This document shows, piece by piece, positions 4,544 to 11,879 of a stretch of 15,911 nt of DNA; the first letter of the stretch is position 1, and every line of letters begins with the position of its first letter. The position numbers and the translations under genes are program-made. The notes beneath the pieces are model-generated. The model worked only from the letters and a program-made list of their open reading frames with translations. It was not told the DNA's origin and made no database searches. The stretch lies in the NCBI GenBank assembly GCA_030044045.1, contig JASHWO010000046.1, positions 1 to 15,911 of the forward strand. Reading direction: 5' to 3'. This stretch comes from Acidimicrobiales bacterium (lineage in GTDB: Bacteria > Actinomycetota > Acidimicrobiia > Acidimicrobiales > RAAP-2).

Positions 4544-6011
4544 CGATGACCTCACGGATGTTGGCCACGTCGGCGAAGAGCATGGCCAGCCGGTCGATGC
4601 CCATGCCGAGCCCAGCGGTGGGCGGGAGCCCGTGCTCCAGCGCCCGCAAGTACTCGGCGTCGACCACCATGGCCTCCTCGTCACCAGCCCGGTGCCGGGC
4701 TGCCTGCTCTTCGAACCGGGCCCGCTGGTCGTCGGGGTCGATCAGCTCGGTGAAGGCGTTGACCAGCTCCCGCCCGGCCACGATGGCCTCGAACCGCTCC
4801 ACCAGGTCCGGGTCGTCGCGGTGCCGGCGGGCCAGCGGCGAGACCTCGGCCGGGTAGTCGCAGACGAGCACCGGCCCCCAGAGGGTGGCCTCGGTGGTTT
4901 TCTCGTAGAGCTCCAGCAGCAGCTTGCCCGGGCCCCAGCCCGGCTCGGGCTCGACCCCGGCGGTGGCCAGGTGGCGGCGCAGCTCGCCCACCGGGGTGTG
5001 CACGTCCACCGACAGCCCGGTGGCCTCTTCGACCAGCGCCGACAGGGTGGCCCGGCGCCAGGGCGGGGCCAGGTCCAGCGGGCGCCCCTGGTAGGTGAGG
5101 GAGGTGGTGCCCAGCAGGTCGGTGGCCAGCCCGGCCACCAGCGCCTCGGTCAGCGCCATCAGGTCCCGGTAGTCGGCGTAGGCCTGGTAGAGCTCGACGG
5201 AGGTGAACTCCGGATTATGCCGGGGGGACAGCCCCTCGTTCCGGAAGAGGCGCCCCAGCTCGAACACCTTCTCGAACCCGCCCACCACCAGCCGCTTCAG
5301 GTAGAGCTCGGGGGCCACCCGCAGGTAGAAGTCGGCGTCGAGGGCATGGTGGTGGGTGACGAAGGGGCGGGCGTGGGCTCCGCCCGGGATAGCGTGGAGC
5401 ACCGGCGTCTCCACTTCGACGAAGCCGCCGGCCCACAACCGCTCGCGGAGCCGCTGGAGCAGGCGGCTGCGCAGCAGCAGCACCCGGCGGCTGCCCTCGT
5501 TGGCCCACAGGTCCACCTCCCGCTGGCGGTAGCGGGTCTCCACGTCGGTCACCCCGCGCCACTTGTCGCCGAAGCCCCGGCGGGTCTCGGCCAGCAACAC
5601 CCACTCGGCCACCTTCACCGACAGCTCGCCCCGCTTGGTCCGCACCACCTCGCCCCGGGCCCCCACCCAGTCACCCAGGTTCCGGCGGACCAGCCCCTCG
5701 AAGTCGGCGGTCACGCCGGCCAGGGCGAAGAGCTGGACCGAGCCGGACGAGTCGCGCAGCTCGGCGAAGGCCACCCGGCCTTGGGGGCGGGACAGCATGA
5801 GCCGCCCGGCCACAGCCACCTCCTGGCCCGACTCCTCGCCGGGGGCCAGCCCGCCCCAACGGGCCGCCACCTCGGCAGCAGTGGCCGTGCGGTCGAAGCG
5901 GTAGGGGATGCTGTGCTGGCTTCGCCCGCCCGGGGCCCCGACCCCGGGCTCCTCCGGAGAGCGGGGACCCCTGCCCCGCTCCCGGCCGTGGTCGCTCTGG
6001 TCGTCGGTCAC
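4515..6011 (-). CDS. lysS: Lysyl-tRNA synthetase, class II, with a repeat-derived N-terminus
   Basis: LysRS charges tRNA-Lys with lysine. The 498 residues contain an OB-fold anticodon-binding domain (about 64-145) and the class II catalytic core: RYRQREVDL (160-168), FVEVETPVL (motif 1, 197-205), ELGRLFRNEGLSPRHNPEFT (motif 2, 251-270) and GLGMGIDRLAMLFAD (motif 3, 467-481), followed by NIREVIAFPTLRP. The start is the GTG whose last two bases begin the coaX TGA (GTGA overlap at 6008-6011); the much longer open frame upstream only shadows coaX. Residues 9-30 ([20 protein letters not shown] and two more) are encoded by a copy of the dispersed hairpin repeat. They replace the usual charged helix before the conserved PYRFDRT (36-42). 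The catalytic part is intact and total length is normal, so I infer a working enzyme. It is the last gene of the long operon. Confidence 0.95.
   Translation of the reverse strand: MTDDQSDHGRERGRGPRSPEEPGVGAPGGRSQHSIPYRFDRTATAAEVAARWGGLAPGEESGQEVAVAGRLMLSRPQGRVAFAELRDSSGSVQLFALAGVTADFEGLVRRNLGDWVGARGEVVRTKRGELSVKVAEWVLLAETRRGFGDKWRGVTDVETRYRQREVDLWANEGSRRVLLLRSRLLQRLRERLWAGGFVEVETPVLHAIPGGAHARPFVTHHHALDADFYLRVAPELYLKRLVVGGFEKVFELGRLFRNEGLSPRHNPEFTSVELYQAYADYRDLMALTEALVAGLATDLLGTTSLTYQGRPLDLAPPWRRATLSALVEEATGLSVDVHTPVGELRRHLATAGVEPEPGWGPGKLLLELYEKTTEATLWGPVLVCDYPAEVSPLARRHRDDPDLVERFEAIVAGRELVNAFTELIDPDDQRARFEEQAARHRAGDEEAMVVDAEYLRALEHGLPPTAGLGMGIDRLAMLFADVANIREVIAFPTLRPGG
5928..5981 (+). repeat. 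Double-hairpin repeat, copy A (in lysS 5' end)
   Basis: Hairpin 1 has stem GCCCGGGG (5928-5935) with CCCCGGGC (5942-5949) and loop CCCCGA. A 9-base linker TCCTCCGGA (5950-5958) follows. Hairpin 2 has stem GAGCGGGG (5959-5966) with CCCCGCTC (5974-5981) and loop ACCCCTG. Similarity to the panC copy extends to about 5924-5988. The copy lies in frame within lysS, about 20 to 30 bases after its start codon, and is read as the reverse complement in the messenger. Confidence 0.85.
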
Positions 6012-6865
6012 CGGGGGCCGCCGGTGCGCACGTTGCGCTCGTAGACGATGCGGAGCCCGTGCAGGGTGAGCCACGGCTCCACGTGCTCGACCACCTCGGC
6101 GTAGGGGGCCACCAGCTCGCTGAGCCCACCGGTGGCCACCACCGTGGCCGGCCCCAGCTCGGCCATGATGCGCCGGCAGAGCCCGTCTACCTGGGCGGCG
6201 AACCCGTAGAGGGCGCCCGACTGGATGGACTCCACGGTGGAGCGGCCGATCACGTCGCGCGGCGGCACCAGCTCCACCCGGCGCAGGGCGGCGGCGTGCT
6301 GGAACAGCGCCTCCAGGCTGATGGCCACCCCCGGGGTGATGGCCCCGCCCAGGTACTCCCCGGCCGCCGAGATGGCGTCGAAGGTGGTGGCCGTCCCCAG
6401 GTCCACCACCACGCAAGGACCCCCGTAGAGGTCGTAGGCCCCCACGGCGTTGGCCACCCGGTCGGCGCCCACCTCCTTCGGGTTGTCGTAGAGGATGGGC
6501 AGGCCGCTCTTGACCCCGGGGCCGAGCACCACGCACGGCACGCCCTCGAACCAGCGGGCGGCCATCTGGCGCAGCTCGCCGGTGACCGCCGGGACCGACG
6601 AGCTGACGGCGATCCCGTCGATGGTGGTCGAGATGTCCAGGCCCTCCAGGTCGAGGAGCTGGGTGAGCAGCACGGCGTGCTCGTCCGGGGTGCGGGTGGG
6701 CACGGTGGAGAGCCGCCAGTGGTGGGTGAGGCCGCGGCGCGGCTCGTCCTCCGCCCCGATGCCGAAGCCGGCGTCGCTCGGGGGCAGGGCCTCGCCCTCG
6801 GCCGCGGTGAGCGCGTAGAGGCCGATGACCGACTCCGTGTTGCCGACGTCGATGGCGAGCAGCAT
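6008..6865 (-). CDS. coaX: Type III pantothenate kinase CoaX
   Basis: CoaX phosphorylates pantothenate, the first step of coenzyme A synthesis, in the cytoplasm. The 285 residues show the ASKHA-fold type III signature: phosphate-binding DVGNT (6-10), HHWRLSTVPTRTPDE (48-62), AVSSSVPAV (86-94), NPKEVGADRVANAVGAY (128-144) with the catalytic-region Asp in GADR, DLGTATTFDAIS (155-166), GGAITPGV (173-180), and IGRST plus IQSGALYG. Residues about 21-45 (TAAEGEALPPSDAGFGIGAE and following) look like an insertion between the first strands compared with typical members. The ATG at 6865 stands three bases after the nadC stop, with a purine-rich GGGAGAGGA upstream inside the nadC end. Its stop overlaps the lysS GTG. 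It completes the local pantothenate-to-CoA set with panC and panD. Confidence 0.95.
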   Translation of the reverse strand: MLLAIDVGNTESVIGLYALTAAEGEALPPSDAGFGIGAEDEPRRGLTHHWRLSTVPTRTPDEHAVLLTQLLDLEGLDISTTIDGIAVSSSVPAVTGELRQMAARWFEGVPCVVLGPGVKSGLPILYDNPKEVGADRVANAVGAYDLYGGPCVVVDLGTATTFDAISAAGEYLGGAITPGVAISLEALFQHAAALRRVELVPPRDVIGRSTVESIQSGALYGFAAQVDGLCRRIMAELGPATVVATGGLSELVAPYAEVVEHVEPWLTLHGLRIVYERNVRTGGPR

Positions 6866-6868
6866 CGG

Positions 6869-7780
6869 TCAATCCTCTCCCACGGCGGTGACGGTCCGCA
6901 GATCCAGGCCGAGGTCGAGCACCGGCGCCGAGTGGGTGAGGGCACCCACCGAGATGAGGTCCACGCCGGCGGCGGCGTACCTCGGCGCGGTGTGCAGGTC
7001 CACGCCGCCCGAGACCTCCACCAGCACCCCGGCCGCCCCGGCCGCCCGCCGGGCCAGGGCGGCGCAGGCGGCGGCCTGGTCGGGGGTCATGTTGTCGAGC
7101 AGGACGGCGGTGGCCCCGGCCCGGCAGGCCTCCTCCACCTGCTCGGGCCGGTCGCACTCCACCTCGACCATGCGGCCCGGCCACAGCGCCCGGGCCCGCC
7201 GCACCGCCTCGGCGATGCCCACCCCGCCCAGGTGGTTGTCCTTCACCAGGACGGCGTCGGAGAGGCTGGCCCGGTGGTTCTGGCCGCCGCCGGCCCGCAC
7301 CGCCGCCTTCTCCAGGGCCCGCAGGCCGGGGGTGGTCTTGCGGGTGTCGAGGACGCGCACCGAGGGGTCCACGGCGGCCACGGCGTCGACGAACCGCCGG
7401 GTCAGGGTGGCCACCCCCGAGAGGTGGCCGAGGAAGTTGAGCGCCGTGCGCTCCCCGGTCAGCACCGGCCGGAGCGGGCCGGCCACCTCGGCCACCACGT
7501 CGCCCGGGGCCACGGCCGAGCCGTCAGGGCGGTGCCAGGTCACGGTCACCGCCGGGTCCACCAGGGTGAAGGCCTCCTCGGCGCAGCGCTGCCCGGCCAC
7601 CACGCCCACCGCCCGGGCCACGATGGCCAGGTGGGCGGTAGCATCGGCCGGCACCAGGGCCGCCGTGAGGTCGCCCAGGGGCAGCACGTCCTCGGCCAGG
7701 GCACGGGCCACCGCCTCCCGCACCGCCGCCGGCGGGGGGTGGACGGGGTCGCCGGGGTCGGGGTCGGGGGGCTCAGCCAT
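6869..7780 (-). CDS. nadC: Quinolinate phosphoribosyltransferase NadC
   Basis: NadC converts quinolinate and PRPP to nicotinate mononucleotide in de novo NAD synthesis. From the ATG at 7780 the protein has 303 residues. Visible are AEDVLPLGDLT (29-39), ERTALNFLGHLSGVAT (110-125), DTRKTTPGLR (145-154), GGGQNHR (164-170), VLVKDNHL (177-184), VEVECD (205-210), LLDN (227-230), EVSGGV (255-260) and ISVGALTHS (276-284), all substrate or PRPP-binding segments of the family. The N-terminal dozen residues are Pro/Asp-rich and unconserved. The start could instead be GTG at 7786 (two residues longer), closer to an AGGGGG. Either start overlaps the 3' end of nadB, so coupled translation is likely. Length is close to the family norm. 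Confidence 0.95.
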   Translation of the reverse strand: MAEPPDPDPGDPVHPPPAAVREAVARALAEDVLPLGDLTAALVPADATAHLAIVARAVGVVAGQRCAEEAFTLVDPAVTVTWHRPDGSAVAPGDVVAEVAGPLRPVLTGERTALNFLGHLSGVATLTRRFVDAVAAVDPSVRVLDTRKTTPGLRALEKAAVRAGGGQNHRASLSDAVLVKDNHLGGVGIAEAVRRARALWPGRMVEVECDRPEQVEEACRAGATAVLLDNMTPDQAAACAALARRAAGAAGVLVEVSGGVDLHTAPRYAAAGVDLISVGALTHSAPVLDLGLDLRTVTAVGED

Positions 7781-9608
7781 GGGCACGCCGGCCCCCTGGG
7801 GCGCGGTGGACCAGGCGGCAGCGCCAGGCCGGGTCGGCCTCGGGGAACTCGACCCGGGCGTGGGCCCCCCGGCTCTCCTCCCGGGCGGTGGCCGAGCGCA
7901 GGAGGGCCCGGGCCAGGGTCACCAGGTTGGCTAGCTCGCCCGGGGCGGCGGCGGGCGGCGGCCCGGCCAGGTGACTGGCCACCTCGTCCAGGCCCGCCCC
8001 GGCGGCCTCGAGGGAGGCCGCGCTGCGCACCACCCCGGCACCGGCGGTCATGGCCCGCTGCAGCAGCTCGCGCTGCTTGCCCCAGTCGACGGTAGTGGGG
8101 CCCCCGGGCGGGCCCGGCGGCACGGCCGGGTCGGGGTTCGTGGGGGGCAGCATCCGGACGGGAATCTCCTCGCCGACGGCCGGCGTGGGGCAGGGGCCCC
8201 ACGCATCGGAGGAGCCCGGGGTCGGGGCCCCGGGCGGGCCCGGAGGCAGCACGGCCGGCGTGGGGCAGGGGCCCCACGCATCGGAGGAGCCCGGGGTCGG
8301 GGCCCCGGGCGGGTAGGCAAACACAGCCGGGGCCAGCAGGCTGCGCATGGCCCCGGTGGGGGTGGGGCCGTCACCACCGCCGGCGATCGACTCGGCCAGG
8401 CGGGCGCCGAACACCATCCCCTCCAGCAGCGAGTTGGAGGCCAGGCGGTTGGCGCCGTGCACGCCGGTGCAGGCCACCTCGCCGGCCGCCCAGAGCCCGG
8501 GCAGCTCGGTGGCCCCCCACAGGTCGGTGACCGCCCCGCCGGAGAGGTGGTGGGCGGCCGGGGCGATGGGCAGCCAGTCGACGGCGGGGTCGAGGCCCAC
8601 CGCGGCCAGCGAGGCGGCGATGGTGGGGAACCGCTCGCCGAACCGGTCCAGGCCGGTGGCGTCGAGCCAGAGGTGCTCGGCCCCCTGCTCGGCCATGCGG
8701 GCGGCCATGGCCCGGCTCACCACGTCCCGCGGGGCCAGCTCGTCCACGAACCGCTCGCCGCCGGCGTCCCGCAGCAAGGCCCCATGCCCCCGCAGGGCCT
8801 CGGACAGCAGAGGCCGGGGCATGGCCGGGTGGTGCAGGGCGGTGGGGTGGAACTGTACGAACTCCACGTCGGCCACGGCCACCCCGGCCCGCAGGGCCAT
8901 GGCCACGCCGTCGCCGGTGGCCTCCCGGGGGTTGGTGGTGACGGCGAAGAGCTGCCCGCCGCCGCCGGTGGCCAGCACCACGTGGCGGGCCCGCACGGCC
9001 ACCGGCGGGCCGGCCGGGGGGAGGGCCAGCACGCCGCCGCACCGCCCGCCCTCCAGCAGCAGGTCGAGGGCGAACCAGCGCTCCAGCACGGCGCCGGCCG
9101 CCGAGCGGGTGGCCTCCACCAGCGCCCGCTCCACCTCGGCCCCGGTGGCCGCCCCGCCGGCGTGGACCACCCGTGGGCGGGAGTGGCCACCCTCCCGGGC
9201 CAGGGCCAGCGAGCCCGAGGCCTCCCGGTCGAAAACGGCACCCAGGGCGATCAGCTCCTCCACCCGGGCCGGGCCCTCGTCGACCAGGACGCGGACGGCG
9301 TCCACGTCACACAGCCCGGCCCCGGCGGCCAGCGTGTCGGCCAGGTGGAGGTCGGTCGAGTCCTCGTCGCCCCCGAGCACGGCGGCCACCCCGCCCTGGG
9401 CCCAGCGGGTGGCCGACTGGGAGAGCTCGCCCTTGGTCATCACCCCGACGTGCAACGCCGGGCCCCGGGTGGGAGTGGCCGTGGTGGCGGCCAGGCGGAC
9501 GGCGGTCGACAGCCCGGCCACCCCGCTGCCCAGCACCAGCACGTCGAAAGGGCCGGGCCCGTCGCCCACCGCCGCCGGAGCCCCGGCGGCGCGCCCCGGC
9601 CGGGTCAC
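7773..9608 (-). CDS. nadB: L-aspartate oxidase NadB with a repeat-filled interdomain insertion
   Basis: NadB oxidises L-aspartate to iminoaspartate using FAD, the first step of NAD synthesis. The 611 residues hold an N-terminal FAD site [15 protein letters not shown] (26-40), [12 protein letters not shown] (65-76), [11 protein letters not shown] (142-152), [11 protein letters not shown] (211-221), the substrate-region QFHPTALH (252-259), APRDVVSRA (292-300), HHLSGG (353-358) and [16 protein letters not shown] (382-397). The C-terminal helical domain restarts near [16 protein letters not shown] (505-520) and holds REESRGAH (577-583). Between them, residues about 432-505 are Pro/Gly-rich and include two identical tracts [21 protein letters not shown] made by tandem copies of the dispersed hairpin repeat. 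The excess over typical NadB (about 540 residues) matches this insertion. The GTG start overlaps the panD stop (GTGA). No nadA is present in the window. Confidence 0.95.
8094..8131 (-). repeat. Degenerate remnant of the hairpin-repeat flank in nadB
   Basis: On the plus strand this stretch resembles the hairpin-1 edge and spacer of the two tandem copies (CCCCGGGCGGGCCCGG then CACGGCCGG), with single-base differences and a shorter spacer. It encodes [11 protein letters not shown], which echoes [12 protein letters not shown] between the full copies. It suggests that the nadB insertion once held, or grew from, a third unit. The match is short and in low-complexity sequence. Confidence 0.4.
8183..8235 (-). 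repeat. Double-hairpin repeat, copy B (in nadB, tandem)
   Basis: In plus-strand coordinates, hairpin 2 is GCGTGGGG (8183-8190) with CCCCACGC (8197-8204), the linker is ATCGGAGGA (8205-8213), and hairpin 1 is GCCCGGGG (8214-8221) with CCCCGGGC (8228-8235). Its orientation is opposite to copies A and D. The identical block shared with copy C runs from 8176 to 8238 (63 bases). Confidence 0.85.
8258..8310 (-). repeat. Double-hairpin repeat, copy C (in nadB, tandem)
   Basis: This copy is identical to copy B and displaced by exactly 75 bases (25 codons). The shared 63-base block is 8251-8313, and the two blocks are separated by 12 unrelated bases (8239-8250). The exact identity points to a recent duplication, and the 75-base period keeps nadB in frame. 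Confidence 0.85.
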
Positions 9609-10000
9609 GCCGGGTCGGCCAGAGAGGTCAATTGGGCGTCGAGCTGGGCCGACGCCTCGTCGATCACCCGGTTCCGCCGGTCGACGTGGACCACCAGGGG
9701 GCGGTAGGTCGCCAGATCTTCCCGGGTGTAGTCGGCGTAGGTGATGAGGATCACCCGGTCACCGGGGGCCACCAGCCGGGCGGCGGCGCCGTTCAGGCAG
9801 ATCTCGCCGCTGCCGCCCTCGATGGCGTAGGTCTCGAAGCGGGCGCCGTTGTCGATGTCGAGCACCGTGACCTGCTCGTAGGGAAGGATGTCGGCCAGGG
9901 CCAGCAGCTCGGTGTCGATGCTCACCGAGCCCACGTAGTGCAGGTTGGCCGAGGTGACCGTGGCCCGGTGGATCTTCGACTTCATCATCCTGCGCTGCAT
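9605..10000 (-). CDS. panD: Aspartate 1-decarboxylase PanD (pyruvoyl enzyme)
   Basis: PanD decarboxylates aspartate to beta-alanine for pantothenate synthesis. It is made as a proenzyme that cleaves itself before a Ser, which becomes the pyruvoyl group. The 131 residues start [16 protein letters not shown], close to the actinobacterial norm, with the cleavage site HYVGSVSID at Gly24-Ser25. [13 protein letters not shown] (49-61), INGAAA-like CLNGAAARL and [12 protein letters not shown] follow. Length is normal. The ATG at 10000 is preceded by AAAGG nine bases upstream. It follows panC after 12 bases, and its stop overlaps the nadB GTG (GTGA). A hairpin-repeat copy in the end of panC ends about 35 bases upstream of this start and could affect its translation (inference). 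Confidence 0.96.
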
Positions 10001-10012
10001 GTGACGGACCTT

Positions 10013-10999
10013 TCAGTCTGTGCTCATATTGCCCGCCTGGGGCCCCAACCCCAGGCTCCTCCGGAGAGCGGGGCCCCTGCCCCGCTCCTGGCCGTCGGTG
10101 ACGGCAGTATGGCTTGCGGCAGCCGCGGCGAGCGGAGAGGGGATCGGGGCCTCGCAGTTGTCGATCAGGCGCACCGGGCCGACCCGGGCGGCCACCAGCA
10201 GGCGGACCTCCCCGGCCCGGTCGAGCGAGGCGGGCACCGAGAGGTCGTCGGCCCGCACCGCCGCCACGTAGTCCAGGCGGGCCAGCGGCTCGGTGGCCAC
10301 CAGCCCAGCCATACGCGAGGCCACCGCCGCCGGCCGGCGCTCGCCGGCGGCCACGGCCTCCCGCCCCGCGGCCAGGGCCCGGGAGAGCACGGTGGCCGCC
10401 GCCCGCTCGTCGGGCGACAGGCGGGCATTCCGGCTGGAGAGGGCCAGCCCGTCGGCCTCGCGCACCGTGGGGCAGCCCACCACCTCGACGGGCAGGGAGA
10501 GGTCGGCGGCCAGGCGCCGCACCACGGCCAGTTGTTGGAAGTCCTTCTCGCCGAAGTAGGCCCAGCACCGGCCAGCCAGGGCGAAGAGCTTGGCCACTAC
10601 GGTGGCCACCCCGTCGAAGTGGCCGGGCCGGGACCGGCCCTCCCACGGCTCGCTCACCCCCCGCACGGACACGGTGGTGGCCGGCGACGCCGGCCAGCCG
10701 GGGTACATCTCGGCCACCGGGGGGGCGAACACGGTGGCCACCCCAGCCGCCCGGCAGGCGGCCAGGTCGGCCTCGGGGGTGCGCGGGTAGCGCTCGATGT
10801 CGTCGGGGTCGCCGAACTGGAGCGGGTTCACGAAGATGGTCACCGCCACGTGGTCGCACGCTCCTGCCGCCCGGGCCATGAGCGAGCGGTGCCCGGCGTG
10901 GACCGCCCCCATGGTGGGGACCAGGCCCACGGTGCGGCCGGTGGCACGGGCGGCGTCGAGCGCCCGGGCGAACCCGTCGGCGGTGCGCACGACCTCCAT
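10013..10999 (-). CDS. panC: Pantothenate synthetase PanC with a repeat-derived C-terminal tail
   Basis: PanC joins pantoate and beta-alanine using ATP. The 328 residues include the HIGH-like VPTMGAVHAGH (27-37), FVNPLQFGDPDD (56-67), YFGEKDFQQLAVVRRL (148-163) and the KMSKS-like SSRNARLS (188-195). The family normally ends near VRLIDN (276-281). Here about 45 more residues follow: an Ala-rich stretch, then GQERGRGPALRRSLGLGPQA (303-322), which is encoded by a dispersed hairpin repeat. The extension has no family meaning that I recognise and probably arose by insertion near the old stop. The ATG at 10999 has GGAG about ten bases upstream and lies 13 bases after the DUF2520 stop. Confidence 0.95.
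   Translation of the reverse strand: MEVVRTADGFARALDAARATGRTVGLVPTMGAVHAGHRSLMARAAGACDHVAVTIFVNPLQFGDPDDIERYPRTPEADLAACRAAGVATVFAPPVAEMYPGWPASPATTVSVRGVSEPWEGRSRPGHFDGVATVVAKLFALAGRCWAYFGEKDFQQLAVVRRLAADLSLPVEVVGCPTVREADGLALSSRNARLSPDERAAATVLSRALAAGREAVAAGERRPAAVASRMAGLVATEPLARLDYVAAVRADDLSVPASLDRAGEVRLLVAARVGPVRLIDNCEAPIPSPLAAAAASHTAVTDGQERGRGPALRRSLGLGPQAGNMSTD
10035..10087 (+). repeat. Double-hairpin repeat, copy D (in panC 3' end)
   Basis: Hairpin 1 is GCCTGGGG (10035-10042) with CCCCAGGC (10049-10056) and loop CCCCAA. The linker TCCTCCGGA (10057-10065) is identical to copy A. Hairpin 2 is GAGCGGGG (10066-10073) with CCCCGCTC (10080-10087) and loop CCCCTG. Compared with copy A, one stem pair changes from C-G to T-A with both sides altered, and the second loop is one base shorter. 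That shift makes panC read the element in a different frame from lysS. Confidence 0.85.
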
Positions 11000-11012: not shown

Positions 11013-11879
11013 CTACCTCGCCACGGCGGCGACCGCGCCGCCTACCAGGCCACCGGGCACATCCTCCACGACCCCGCCGTCCGCTCCGACCAGGAGGGCG
11101 CCGCCCGCCGGGGTGGCAGTCGGAGCGGCAGTGGCCAGGGGCGCCGCAGTGGCCAGGGGCGCCGGGTCGTGGCCGGTGGCCAGGCGCACGGCCAGGGCCA
11201 CCCCGGCGTTGTAGCCGGGGCGCTCCTCCGGAGCCAGGGCTCGCCCGTGGCGGGCCAGGGTGGCCCAGTCGCCGCGGGCGGCGGGACCGGTCAGCGCCCG
11301 CTGCGGGCCGAGCCGGGCCACGTCGTCGACCGCCGTCCGGGTGAGGTCCAGGAAGGCGTCGAGCGGCAGCCCGGCGGCGGCGGCCACCCGCTCCACCTGG
11401 CCCAGCAGGGCCACCACGTGGTTGGCGGCGATGCACGCCGCCGCGTGGTAGGTGGCACGGTCGGCATCGGCCACCTCCATGGCCCTCCCGCCGAGCGACT
11501 CGGCCATCTCCCGGGCCACCGGGTCGCCGGCCACGGCGAAGGCCACGCCACCGGCCAGGCGACGGGCCCCGTCGGCCGGGTTCGGCAGGGGCACCAGCGG
11601 GTGCAGCGCCGCCCGCCGCGGGTGCGGGGCCAGCACGTCCAACCCCAGCGAGCCCGAGAGGTGGGCCACCACGGTGGCCGGGTCCGGCCGGACGGTGGCC
11701 GCCACCTCGGCCACCACGTCGTCGGGCGTGGCGACGACCAGCACGTCGACACCGGAGGCTGCGGCCGACGGATCGTCCCCCCGGCCGAGCAGGCCCACCA
11801 CGTCCCAGCCCGCGCCCCGCAGGGCAGTGGCCAGCGAGCATCCGGCCCGACCGGGGCCGATGATCCGTAGGGAACGCAC
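11013..11879 (-). CDS. Rossmann-fold/DUF2520 protein, candidate ketopantoate reductase
   Basis: The 288 residues start with a nucleotide-binding Rossmann motif IIGPGRAGCSLA (6-17) and VDVLVVATPDDVVAEV (44-59). The DUF2520-like helical half follows, with LHPLVPLP (92-99), YHAAACIAANHVVALLGQVE (144-163) and GPAARGDWATLARHGRAL (197-214). The arrangement resembles ketopantoate reductase and related 6-phosphogluconate dehydrogenase-like enzymes. Its place just before panC suggests a role in making pantoate, but that is inference; actinobacterial members are usually annotated as unknown. The start is GTG at 11879, with a strong AAGGAGGA just upstream. The C-terminal 50 residues are Ala-rich and include an APLATA tandem repeat from an 18-base duplication. 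The folK stop is 72 bases upstream, the widest gap inside the long minus-strand run apart from folE-folP. Confidence 0.8.
   Translation of the reverse strand: MRSLRIIGPGRAGCSLATALRGAGWDVVGLLGRGDDPSAAASGVDVLVVATPDDVVAEVAATVRPDPATVVAHLSGSLGLDVLAPHPRRAALHPLVPLPNPADGARRLAGGVAFAVAGDPVAREMAESLGGRAMEVADADRATYHAAACIAANHVVALLGQVERVAAAAGLPLDAFLDLTRTAVDDVARLGPQRALTGPAARGDWATLARHGRALAPEERPGYNAGVALAVRLATGHDPAPLATAAPLATAAPTATPAGGALLVGADGGVVEDVPGGLVGGAVAAVAR
11128..11163. repeat. Two tandem 18-base units in the DUF2520 gene
   Basis: GCAGTGGCCAGGGGCGCC occurs at 11128-11145 and again at 11146-11163 without spacing. The duplication adds six codons in frame (PLATAA repeated) in the Ala-rich tail, as expected from replication slippage. 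Confidence 0.8.

What the first reader, a model, noticed from the sequence alone, without database searches (positions are those of the whole stretch)
5924..10090. Dispersed double-hairpin repeat family with compensatory stem changes
Four copies of an element of about 54 bp share one architecture: an 8-bp stem with a 6-base loop (CCCCRA), a 9-base linker TCCTCCGRW, then a second 8-bp stem with loop (A)CCCCTG. Copies lie at 5928-5981 and 10035-10087 (one orientation) and 8183-8235 and 8258-8310 (the other). Stem differences are paired. Stem 1 is GCCCGGGG/CCCCGGGC in three copies and GCCTGGGG/CCCCAGGC in the panC copy. Stem 2 is GAGCGGGG/CCCCGCTC in lysS and panC but GCGTGGGG/CCCCACGC in nadB, with two pairs changed on both sides. 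Paired change implies that the folded DNA or RNA is what is kept. The pattern recalls REP/BIME, MIRU or rickettsial palindromic elements, but I do not recognise this sequence as a described family.
Basis: partly seen in the sequence, partly recalled or inferred. Interest (0 to 1): 0.85.

Follow-up and report, generated by a model that had tools for sequence, protein, structure and literature searches.

The report
Mobile double-hairpin DNA repeats in Acidimicrobiia
A roughly 60-base, very GC-rich sequence that folds into two hairpins has spread to dozens of places in some uncultured actinobacterial genomes, landing between and even inside genes, apparently as a small hitch-hiking mobile element whose mover is still unknown.

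Summary
The four copies are real and not chance (4 hits, 0 in 200 shuffles). They belong to a family with 55, 46, 29 and 17 hits in four actinobacterial genomes, present in 30 of 397 sampled genomes of one order and 2 of 396 of the phylum. Both stems covary. Sites are polymorphic: syntenic G009 lacks copies at the window's three places and has its own at two places empty in the window; L218, L219 and L222 of G305 and L226 of G306 have empty counterparts in relatives. At one filled/empty pair a 14-16-nt target is duplicated around the array; elsewhere leader repeats are enriched but in a minority of arrays. Units stand head-to-tail. Y1 transposase was found in 1 of 16 carriers tested; reverse transcriptase does not correlate. 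No Rfam match. Best reading: a new family of non-autonomous mobile double-hairpin elements moved in trans by an unidentified enzyme. Tested REP/BIME features fail. A mismatch bias hinting at an RNA intermediate did not replicate; how it moves is open.

The parts
5913..5927 (+). leader GTGCTGGCTTCG + CCC of the lysS copy
   Evidence: sequence; leaders of other copies
5928..5949 (+). lysS copy, hairpin 1 (8-bp stem, loop CCCCGA)
5950..5958 (+). lysS copy, linker TCCTCCGGA (includes 5' foot of hairpin 2 and bulged A)
5959..5981 (+). lysS copy, hairpin 2 (8-bp stem, loop ACCCCTG)
5982..5989 (+). lysS copy, 3' foot and tail CCGGCCGT; the copy lies in the N-terminal extension of the lysS reading frame and is absent from the syntenic G009 lysS
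8183..8235 (-). nadB copy A (second unit of the tandem pair), hairpins 1 and 2
8236..8257 (-). tail and leader-like linker between the two tandem nadB copies
8258..8310 (-). nadB copy B (first unit of the tandem pair), hairpins 1 and 2; both copies are open in frame within the variable linker of NadB
   Evidence: NadB linker alignment with 15 relatives
8311..8324 (-). CCC and leader GTGTTTGCCTA of the nadB array
   Evidence: sequence
10020..10034 (+). leader GTGCTCATATTG + CCC of the panC copy
   Evidence: sequence; resembles the G009-group leaders (by eye)
10035..10056 (+). panC copy, hairpin 1 (C-G to T-A paired change)
10057..10065 (+). panC copy, linker TCCTCCGGA
10066..10095 (+). panC copy, hairpin 2 and tail; the copy lies in the 3' end of the panC frame before panD, absent from G009 where panC and panD adjoin

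Best explanation
The feature is a new family of short, non-autonomous mobile elements. The core unit (about 62 nt) is CCC - hairpin 1 - TCCTC - hairpin 2 with a bulged A - tail ending CCGT. It inserts at preferred short sites, often at gene ends, and at least sometimes duplicates the stretch just 5' of the insertion point (14-16 nt at the one filled/empty pair where it is shown; 7-14 nt shared stretches elsewhere, supported statistically). Because the repeated leader recreates the target behind the copy, repeated insertion or slippage gives head-to-tail arrays of leader-core units (inferred). The hairpins are probably what the mobilising enzyme recognises, as folded single-stranded DNA or RNA (inferred). 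The enzyme acts in trans and is unidentified. Most copies have no stop codon in any frame, so in-frame insertions into genes such as nadB, lysS and panC can be tolerated (inferred).
For: Copy number and patchiness: hits in 9 of 9 genomes behind the pattern scan, with G009 46, G006 29, G002 17, G004 9 at E 0.01; G293 55 at E 0.001; 30 of 397 genomes of the order; 3 of 6 of G009's family, itself included. Empty sites: syntenic block in G009 with reciprocal presence/absence at five places; 15 other NadB proteins lack the insertion; L218 (G305) empty in G306, G009, G307, G308; L219 in G306 and G009; L222 in G306; L226 (G306) in G305 and G009 (flank HSPs 71-88% identical). Same junction but opposite orientation in G009 (L251) and G293 (L165), hence separate events. 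Target duplication: L222 has (CC)GTCATCTGTCCTCC on both sides, G306 has CCGTCATGTCCCCTCC once. Leader found again behind the array with at least 7 matching nt in 15 of 42 arrays of G009/G305/G306 vs 1.7% of mispaired controls, and in 6 of 40 of G293 vs 2.9%; 9 of these 21 shared stretches start with GT. Target preference: up to 1.1 bits per position in the 12 nt 5' of the core, at most 0.39 (G293) and 0.25 (G009 group) on the 3' side. Covariation: 42 cells with two-sided change vs 13.1 in shuffles, 95.2% vs 82.7% paired; the variable pairs of stem 1 are Watson-Crick in 78, 74 and 70 of 83 distinct copies vs means of 40-44 in shuffles. Stop-free in all six frames: 90 of 113 copies.
Against: No enzyme is linked or correlated: no recurrent mobile gene seen among 535 predicted proteins near copies (judged by eye); Y1_Tnp in 1 of 16 carriers tested; RVT_1 in 5 of 15 carriers and 5 of 13 non-carriers. 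The clean target duplication rests on one DNA-level pair; other pairs were too diverged or had extra DNA. Most arrays show no clear leader repeat behind the last unit, and many repeats run on into a partial next unit, so some are array remnants. In the second set the leader repeat exceeds same-genome mispairs less clearly (16 of 39 vs 25.7%). In G006, G710, G732 and G753 the leader is itself conserved and seems to belong to the unit rather than to the target. Two of the five covariation measures are not above shuffles (pairs with two-sided change 7 vs 5.7, reached by 75 of 500; further pair types 10 vs 11.3). The named source genomes are MAGs, most others are unnamed, and the window's own genome is not held.
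Confidence: 0.68

Rival explanations
1. Single-strand (HUH-type) transposition as in IS200/IS605 and REP/REPIN: the hairpins are recognised in single-stranded DNA and the element is pasted next to a short target.
For: Hairpins with a bulged base, one-sided target preference, strand-asymmetric element.
Against: Y1_Tnp found in only 1 of 16 carriers tested, G007, a Bipolaricaulis MAG with one hit (G305, G306 and the window genome not tested). Direct repeats around copies are not expected of IS200/IS605 (recalled). Arrays are head-to-tail.
Confidence: 0.2
2. Retroposition: a small RNA from the bottom strand is reverse transcribed at the target, giving variable target duplications and truncated copies.
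For: Direct repeats of variable length. Partial copies keeping leader + hairpin 1 stand downstream of 15 arrays, partial copies keeping hairpin 2 + tail stand upstream of about 7, of 84 arrays (read). In the first set stem mismatches were 12 C.A vs 0 G.T/T.G on the top strand, bulged A excluded.
Against: The mismatch bias did not replicate: 3 C.A vs 6 G.T/T.G in 40 further copies. Both kinds of partial copy occur. RVT_1 was not found in G009, G305, G006 and G249.
Confidence: 0.12
3. A fixed regulatory or structural element (terminator, mRNA stabiliser, gyrase or nucleoid-protein site) spread by descent; paired changes reflect selection on the fold.
For: Often at gene ends (crude gene calls); stable stems.
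Against: Both orientations relative to genes and copies inside reading frames, reciprocal empty sites, no hits in the five nearest relatives by NadB (G239, G287, G252, G147, G088), though the sixth, G233, has two.
Confidence: 0.08
4. Paired stem changes come from palindrome-correcting mutation (template switching at hairpins), not from selection on the fold. This concerns the covariation, not the mobility.
For: GC-rich perfect stems invite it (general knowledge); no pair had a one-sided wobble change.
Against: Loops, linker and tail are also conserved across genomes while stem letters vary, which a purely mutational process would not explain; one-sided mismatches do occur in larger sets.
Confidence: 0.25
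5. Coding tandem repeats kept for their peptide.
For: Copies in nadB, lysS and panC are open in frame.
Against: Different strands and frames give different peptides; 15 of 22 G293 copies were called intergenic; relatives lack the insertions.
Confidence: 0.02

Closest known systems
REP / REPIN / BIME with RAYT (TnpA-REP)
   Same: Short dispersed palindromes, high copy in some genomes, thought non-autonomous; tandem clusters that include flanking DNA are reported for REPINs (passages of PMC3116915).
   Different: Here two same-orientation hairpins make one unit, arrays are head-to-tail, no GTAG tag, Y1 transposase in 1 of 16 carriers tested, direct repeats around part of the arrays.
CGTC-tagged palindromic repeats, incl. 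Rickettsia palindromic elements (passages of PMC3733652; RPE also in PMC10969869)
   Same: Short palindromes with a CGT-containing end, also inside genes, without a dedicated transposase.
   Different: The fourth tag base is not fixed here: CGTC 45, CGTG 49, CGTT 14, CGTA 12, no CCGT 21 of 141 hits. CGTC repeats are reported from five phyla, Actinobacteria not among them, and mostly as HH dimers.
Mitochondrial double-hairpin elements (Allomyces) and yeast GC clusters
   Same: Hairpin-forming elements thought mobile, with no settled enzyme; yeast GC clusters are flanked by short direct repeats (passages of PMC4478555; Allomyces elements only through passages and citations in PMC2800124).
   Different: Mitochondrial, other sequences; yeast repeats are AG or ACT, not a stretch of 7-16 nt. 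Homology was not tested.
Small dispersed repeats (SDR) of cyanobacteria
   Same: Tiny mobile repeats without a known enzyme (recalled; the term was only counted once in PMC3116915, passage not seen).
   Different: Not compared by sequence.

Membership tests
REP/REPIN (RAYT-mobilised) | RAYT / Y1 tyrosine transposase in the genome | tested here: not met
   PF01797 in 1 of 16 carriers tested, the exception G007 having one hit; G305, G306 and the window genome not tested; genomes may be incomplete
REP/REPIN (RAYT-mobilised) | GTAG tag at one end | tested here: not met
   conserved tail is CCGT, conserved 5' side CCC
BIME | alternating orientation of neighbouring units | tested here: not met
   among the 118 hits no two neighbours within 130 nt lie in opposite orientation
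CGTC repeats / RPE | CGTC at one end | tested here: not met
   CGTC in 45 of 141 hits, CGTG in 49
CGTC repeats / RPE | insertion inside protein-coding genes | tested here: met
   nadB and lysS in the window
MITE (DDE transposase-mobilised) | terminal inverted repeats | tested here: not met
   core ends NCCCGG... and ...CGGCCGT are not inverted repeats of each other (by inspection); the palindromes are internal
MITE (DDE transposase-mobilised) | target-site duplication | tested here: inconclusive
   one clean filled/empty pair; leader repeats of variable length in a minority of arrays
Rfam families | match to a covariance model | tested here: not met
   0 matches in the window at gathering score; 0 at E 0.1 over six sources
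SINE-like retroposon | reverse-transcriptase partner that goes with the copies | tested here: not met
   RVT_1 in 5 of 15 carriers and 5 of 13 non-carriers
SINE-like retroposon | transcribed RNA intermediate | not testable with these tools
   no expression data

The most novel reading that the evidence does not exclude
A bacterial mobile element of a new kind: hairpin units inserted by an RNA- or single-strand-templated reaction that duplicates a target of variable length, often starting at GT, so that each insertion recreates its own target and grows head-to-tail arrays, driven in trans by an unknown enzyme with lineage-specific target preference (GTRACAY, RTGCTSATT-like, or a small hairpin).
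Probability: 0.2. Interest if true: 0.82.

Novelty: new variant of a known kind. Interest (0 to 1): 0.62.

Why it matters
It adds a well-defined family of tiny mobile palindromes in a phylum that the survey of tagged palindromes, as far as its passages were seen, does not list, with filled and empty sites, leader repeats and arrays in hand. Because hits range from 0 to 55 within one order, the unknown mobilising enzyme could be sought by gene-content comparison, which bears on the old question of how transposase-less palindromes (CGTC repeats, RPE, mitochondrial double-hairpin elements) move. The in-frame insertions also suggest a route by which metabolic enzymes acquire linker peptides.

Tried and rejected
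Looked for the own genome (not held). Coding conservation: rejected, frames and strands differ. TnpA-REP: found in 1 of 16 carriers tested and 1 of 8 non-carriers. Reverse transcriptase: no correlation. Linked transposase: all-against-all comparison of 535 predicted proteins near copies gave clusters that look like housekeeping orthologues plus some out-of-frame ORFs, judged by eye and not by family search. Vehicle: pattern absent from viral contigs; no match to the panC copy in plasmids or phages at E 0.001. Strand bias of mismatches: 12 to 0 in the first set, 3 to 6 in the second, so dropped as evidence. 5'-truncation as a sign of retroposition: both kinds of partial copy occur, so only weak. 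The leader was first taken as host DNA only; in several genomes it is conserved and probably part of the unit (the 1.28 Mb examined is mostly DNA fetched because of copies or of the window's genes, so stand-alone leaders elsewhere are not excluded). My GC3-based gene caller is crude; gap lengths from it are not relied on. One search used 141 hits: 47 could not be anchored (deviating linker or loop), 83 distinct copies were counted, the rest were duplicates. In one search only 40 distinct copies from the 60 fetched stretches met the anchor; none from G684, G738 or G690.

Papers: only search listings and found passages (PMC3733652, PMC4478555, PMC3116915, PMC2800124, PMC10969869) were seen. In those eight listings I saw no paper whose title or abstract start describes this sequence; most subscription journals are not in the library.
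Full report
OBSERVATION. The window (75% GC) holds folE, panC, panD, nadB, nadC, coaX and lysS by family match above a curated cut-off; hpt, folP, folB, folK, clpC and a polyprenyl synthase are named from memory or from matches below the cut-off. A 25-base pattern taken from hairpin 1 and the linker hits only these four places even with three mismatches allowed, against 0 in 200 shuffles. In lysS and panC the unit is antisense to the gene, in nadB sense; the three peptides differ.

FAMILY. One scan of the collection of 84,980 genomes with the exact pattern gave 21 stretches with 23 matches in 9 genomes, nearly all titled as Acidimicrobiia, Acidimicrobiales or unclassified actinobacterial MAGs; one is a MAG called Frankiaceae and one a MAG called Bipolaricaulis, each with a single hit by the later model. 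The pattern fixes the inner four pairs of stem 1 and the last base of its 3' arm, but leaves the other three letters of that arm free; the outer four letters of the 5' arm and all of hairpin 2 lie outside it, so these sequences test the outer pairing fairly. On 23 copies (19 of the 23 matches plus the 4 of the window; two matches were left out for masked bases, two, L013 and L014, because hairpin 2 was not intact) 95.2% of 352 cells pair against 82.7% in shuffles, and 42 cells have changes on both sides against 13.1; the number of pairs with such a change (7 against 5.7) and of further pair types (10 against 11.3) is not above shuffles. A covariance model from these copies gave 1 to 46 hits in the 9 genomes (E 0.01) and 55 in G293 (E 0.001). 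Samples: 12 of 296 genomes of the class at E 0.001, 30 of 397 of the order at E 1e-5, 2 of 396 of the phylum at E 1e-5, namely G009 itself and G010; these large samples use stricter filters and lose weak matches. No Rfam family matches.

ANATOMY. Across genomes the unit is: leader - CCC - hairpin 1 (GNNNGGGG, loop mostly CCCCRA, CCCCNNNC) - TCCTC - hairpin 2 (3-5 bp foot, bulged A, 7-8 bp, loop of 6-7) - tail ending CCGT. Stem letters vary in pairs while loops, linker and tail are mostly kept. In 83 distinct copies anchored on unpaired letters, the three variable pairs of stem 1 are Watson-Crick in 78, 74 and 70, against shuffle means of 40.0, 42.9 and 43.5 (the hits came from the structure model, so they lean towards pairing). 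In 40 further copies 154 of 160 outer stem-1 cells and 120 of 144 stem-2 cells pair (same caveat). Leaders differ by lineage: GTRACAY in G293, RTGCTSATT-like in G009, G305, G306 and the window, and a small hairpin (GGCGGCTTCGCCGC) in G006, G710, G732 and others (consensus by eye). In the two groups tested the information peaks at 1.1 bits in the 12 nt 5' of CCC and reaches at most 0.39 and 0.25 bits on the 3' side.

PLACEMENT AND MOBILITY. The window is syntenic with a 19.9-kb stretch of G009 (protein matches 46-84% identical). G009 has no copy at the window's three places: coaX and lysS lie close together, panC and panD adjoin, NadB lacks the inserted linker. It has its own copies before folE (where ftsH precedes, unlike in the window) and after the polyprenyl synthase gene, and the window has none there. 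Fifteen other NadB proteins lack the insertion, and the 15 panC-panD junctions printed from relatives show none by eye. Of 15 pairs of loci with orthologous neighbours, only the groEL locus of the close relatives G305 and G306 shares site and orientation clearly; L176/L008 may; L251/L165 and L217/L019 are at the same junction in opposite orientation; the rest differ in junction (read by eye). Using flanks of 13 G305/G306 loci as one query, DNA-level empty sites were found: L218 (G305) against G306, G009, G307 and G308 (1, 85, 42 and 35 nt between the flanks), L219 against G306 and G009 (1 and 6 nt), L222 against G306, and L226 (G306, three units) against G305 and G009. For L222 the filled site has (CC)GTCATCTGTCCTCC on both sides of the two-unit array and the empty G306 site has CCGTCATGTCCCCTCC once. 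L215, L216, L217, L220, L223, L224 and L229 were too diverged, had extra DNA at the site or lacked one flank, so their ends cannot be placed. The L219 leader (GCCATC) is present in the empty G306 site, so there the leader is host DNA; at L218 the stop codon TGA is host DNA but the last 8 leader bases are not found in the empty site.

DIRECT REPEATS AND ARRAYS. The 118 hits in 80 loci of G293, G009, G305 and G306 fall into 84 arrays of one to three detected units; G753 has four hits within about 400 nt. The spacing is 75-78 nt in 19 of 31 neighbouring pairs. The leader is found again behind the last unit with at least 7 matching nt in 15 of 42 arrays of the G009 group (mispaired control 1.7%) and 6 of 40 of G293 (2.9%); 9 of these 21 shared stretches start with GT (2 of 84 arrays dropped). 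In the second set 16 of 39 share at least 8 nt, against 25.7% of same-genome and 12.3% of all mispairs, a weaker contrast because these leaders are alike. Many such repeats run on into a partial next unit, so some are array remnants rather than target duplications.

MOVER. Y1_Tnp: 1 of 16 carriers, 1 of 8 non-carriers. RVT_1: 5 of 15 carriers, 5 of 13 non-carriers. No shared neighbouring mobile gene was seen. A hint that the bottom strand is the folded one (12 C.A against 0 G.T or T.G mismatches) failed on new data (3 against 6).

CONCLUSION. Shown: a real, covarying, multi-copy, site-polymorphic family. Likely: mobility by insertion with a preferred target and, at least sometimes, duplication of it. 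Inferred: recognition of the folded form and a trans-acting enzyme. It works like REP, RPE and mitochondrial double-hairpin elements, but fails tested membership features of REP/BIME, CGTC repeats and classical MITEs.

Noticed in passing
L064-L068 and L314-L324 (G006), L334-L345 (G710), L352-L356 (G732), L001, L002: In several carriers the leader is a third small hairpin (GGCGGCTTCGCCGC, shorter in L001 and L002) with paired changes (e.g. GGCGCCTACGGCGC), so the unit there may be a triple hairpin.
   Followed up: partly
window 5928-5981, 8183-8310, 10035-10087: On the strand opposite to the unit's orientation each unit has four GGGG runs (GGGGCAGGGG and GGGGTYGGGG), so a G-quadruplex is an alternative fold; the linker there reads GGAGGA, like a Shine-Dalgarno sequence.
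   Followed up: no
L015 (JAGUVP010000226.1): The single copy in a MAG titled Bipolaricaulis is on a 3.4-kb contig of 67% GC whose ORFs look like nuo subunits (by eye); possibly an actinobacterial contig binned wrongly.
   Followed up: partly
window 11013-11879 (-): An ORF between panC and folK with no NCBIfam match; it resembles DUF2520/Rossmann dehydrogenases from memory. It was not among the proteins searched in... the query list included it and no match to the syntenic G009 stretch was returned.
   Followed up: partly
L255 (G009 contig 47), about 12.7-17.2 kb: About 4.5 kb lies between lysS and the polyprenyl synthase gene in G009 that the window lacks.
   Followed up: no
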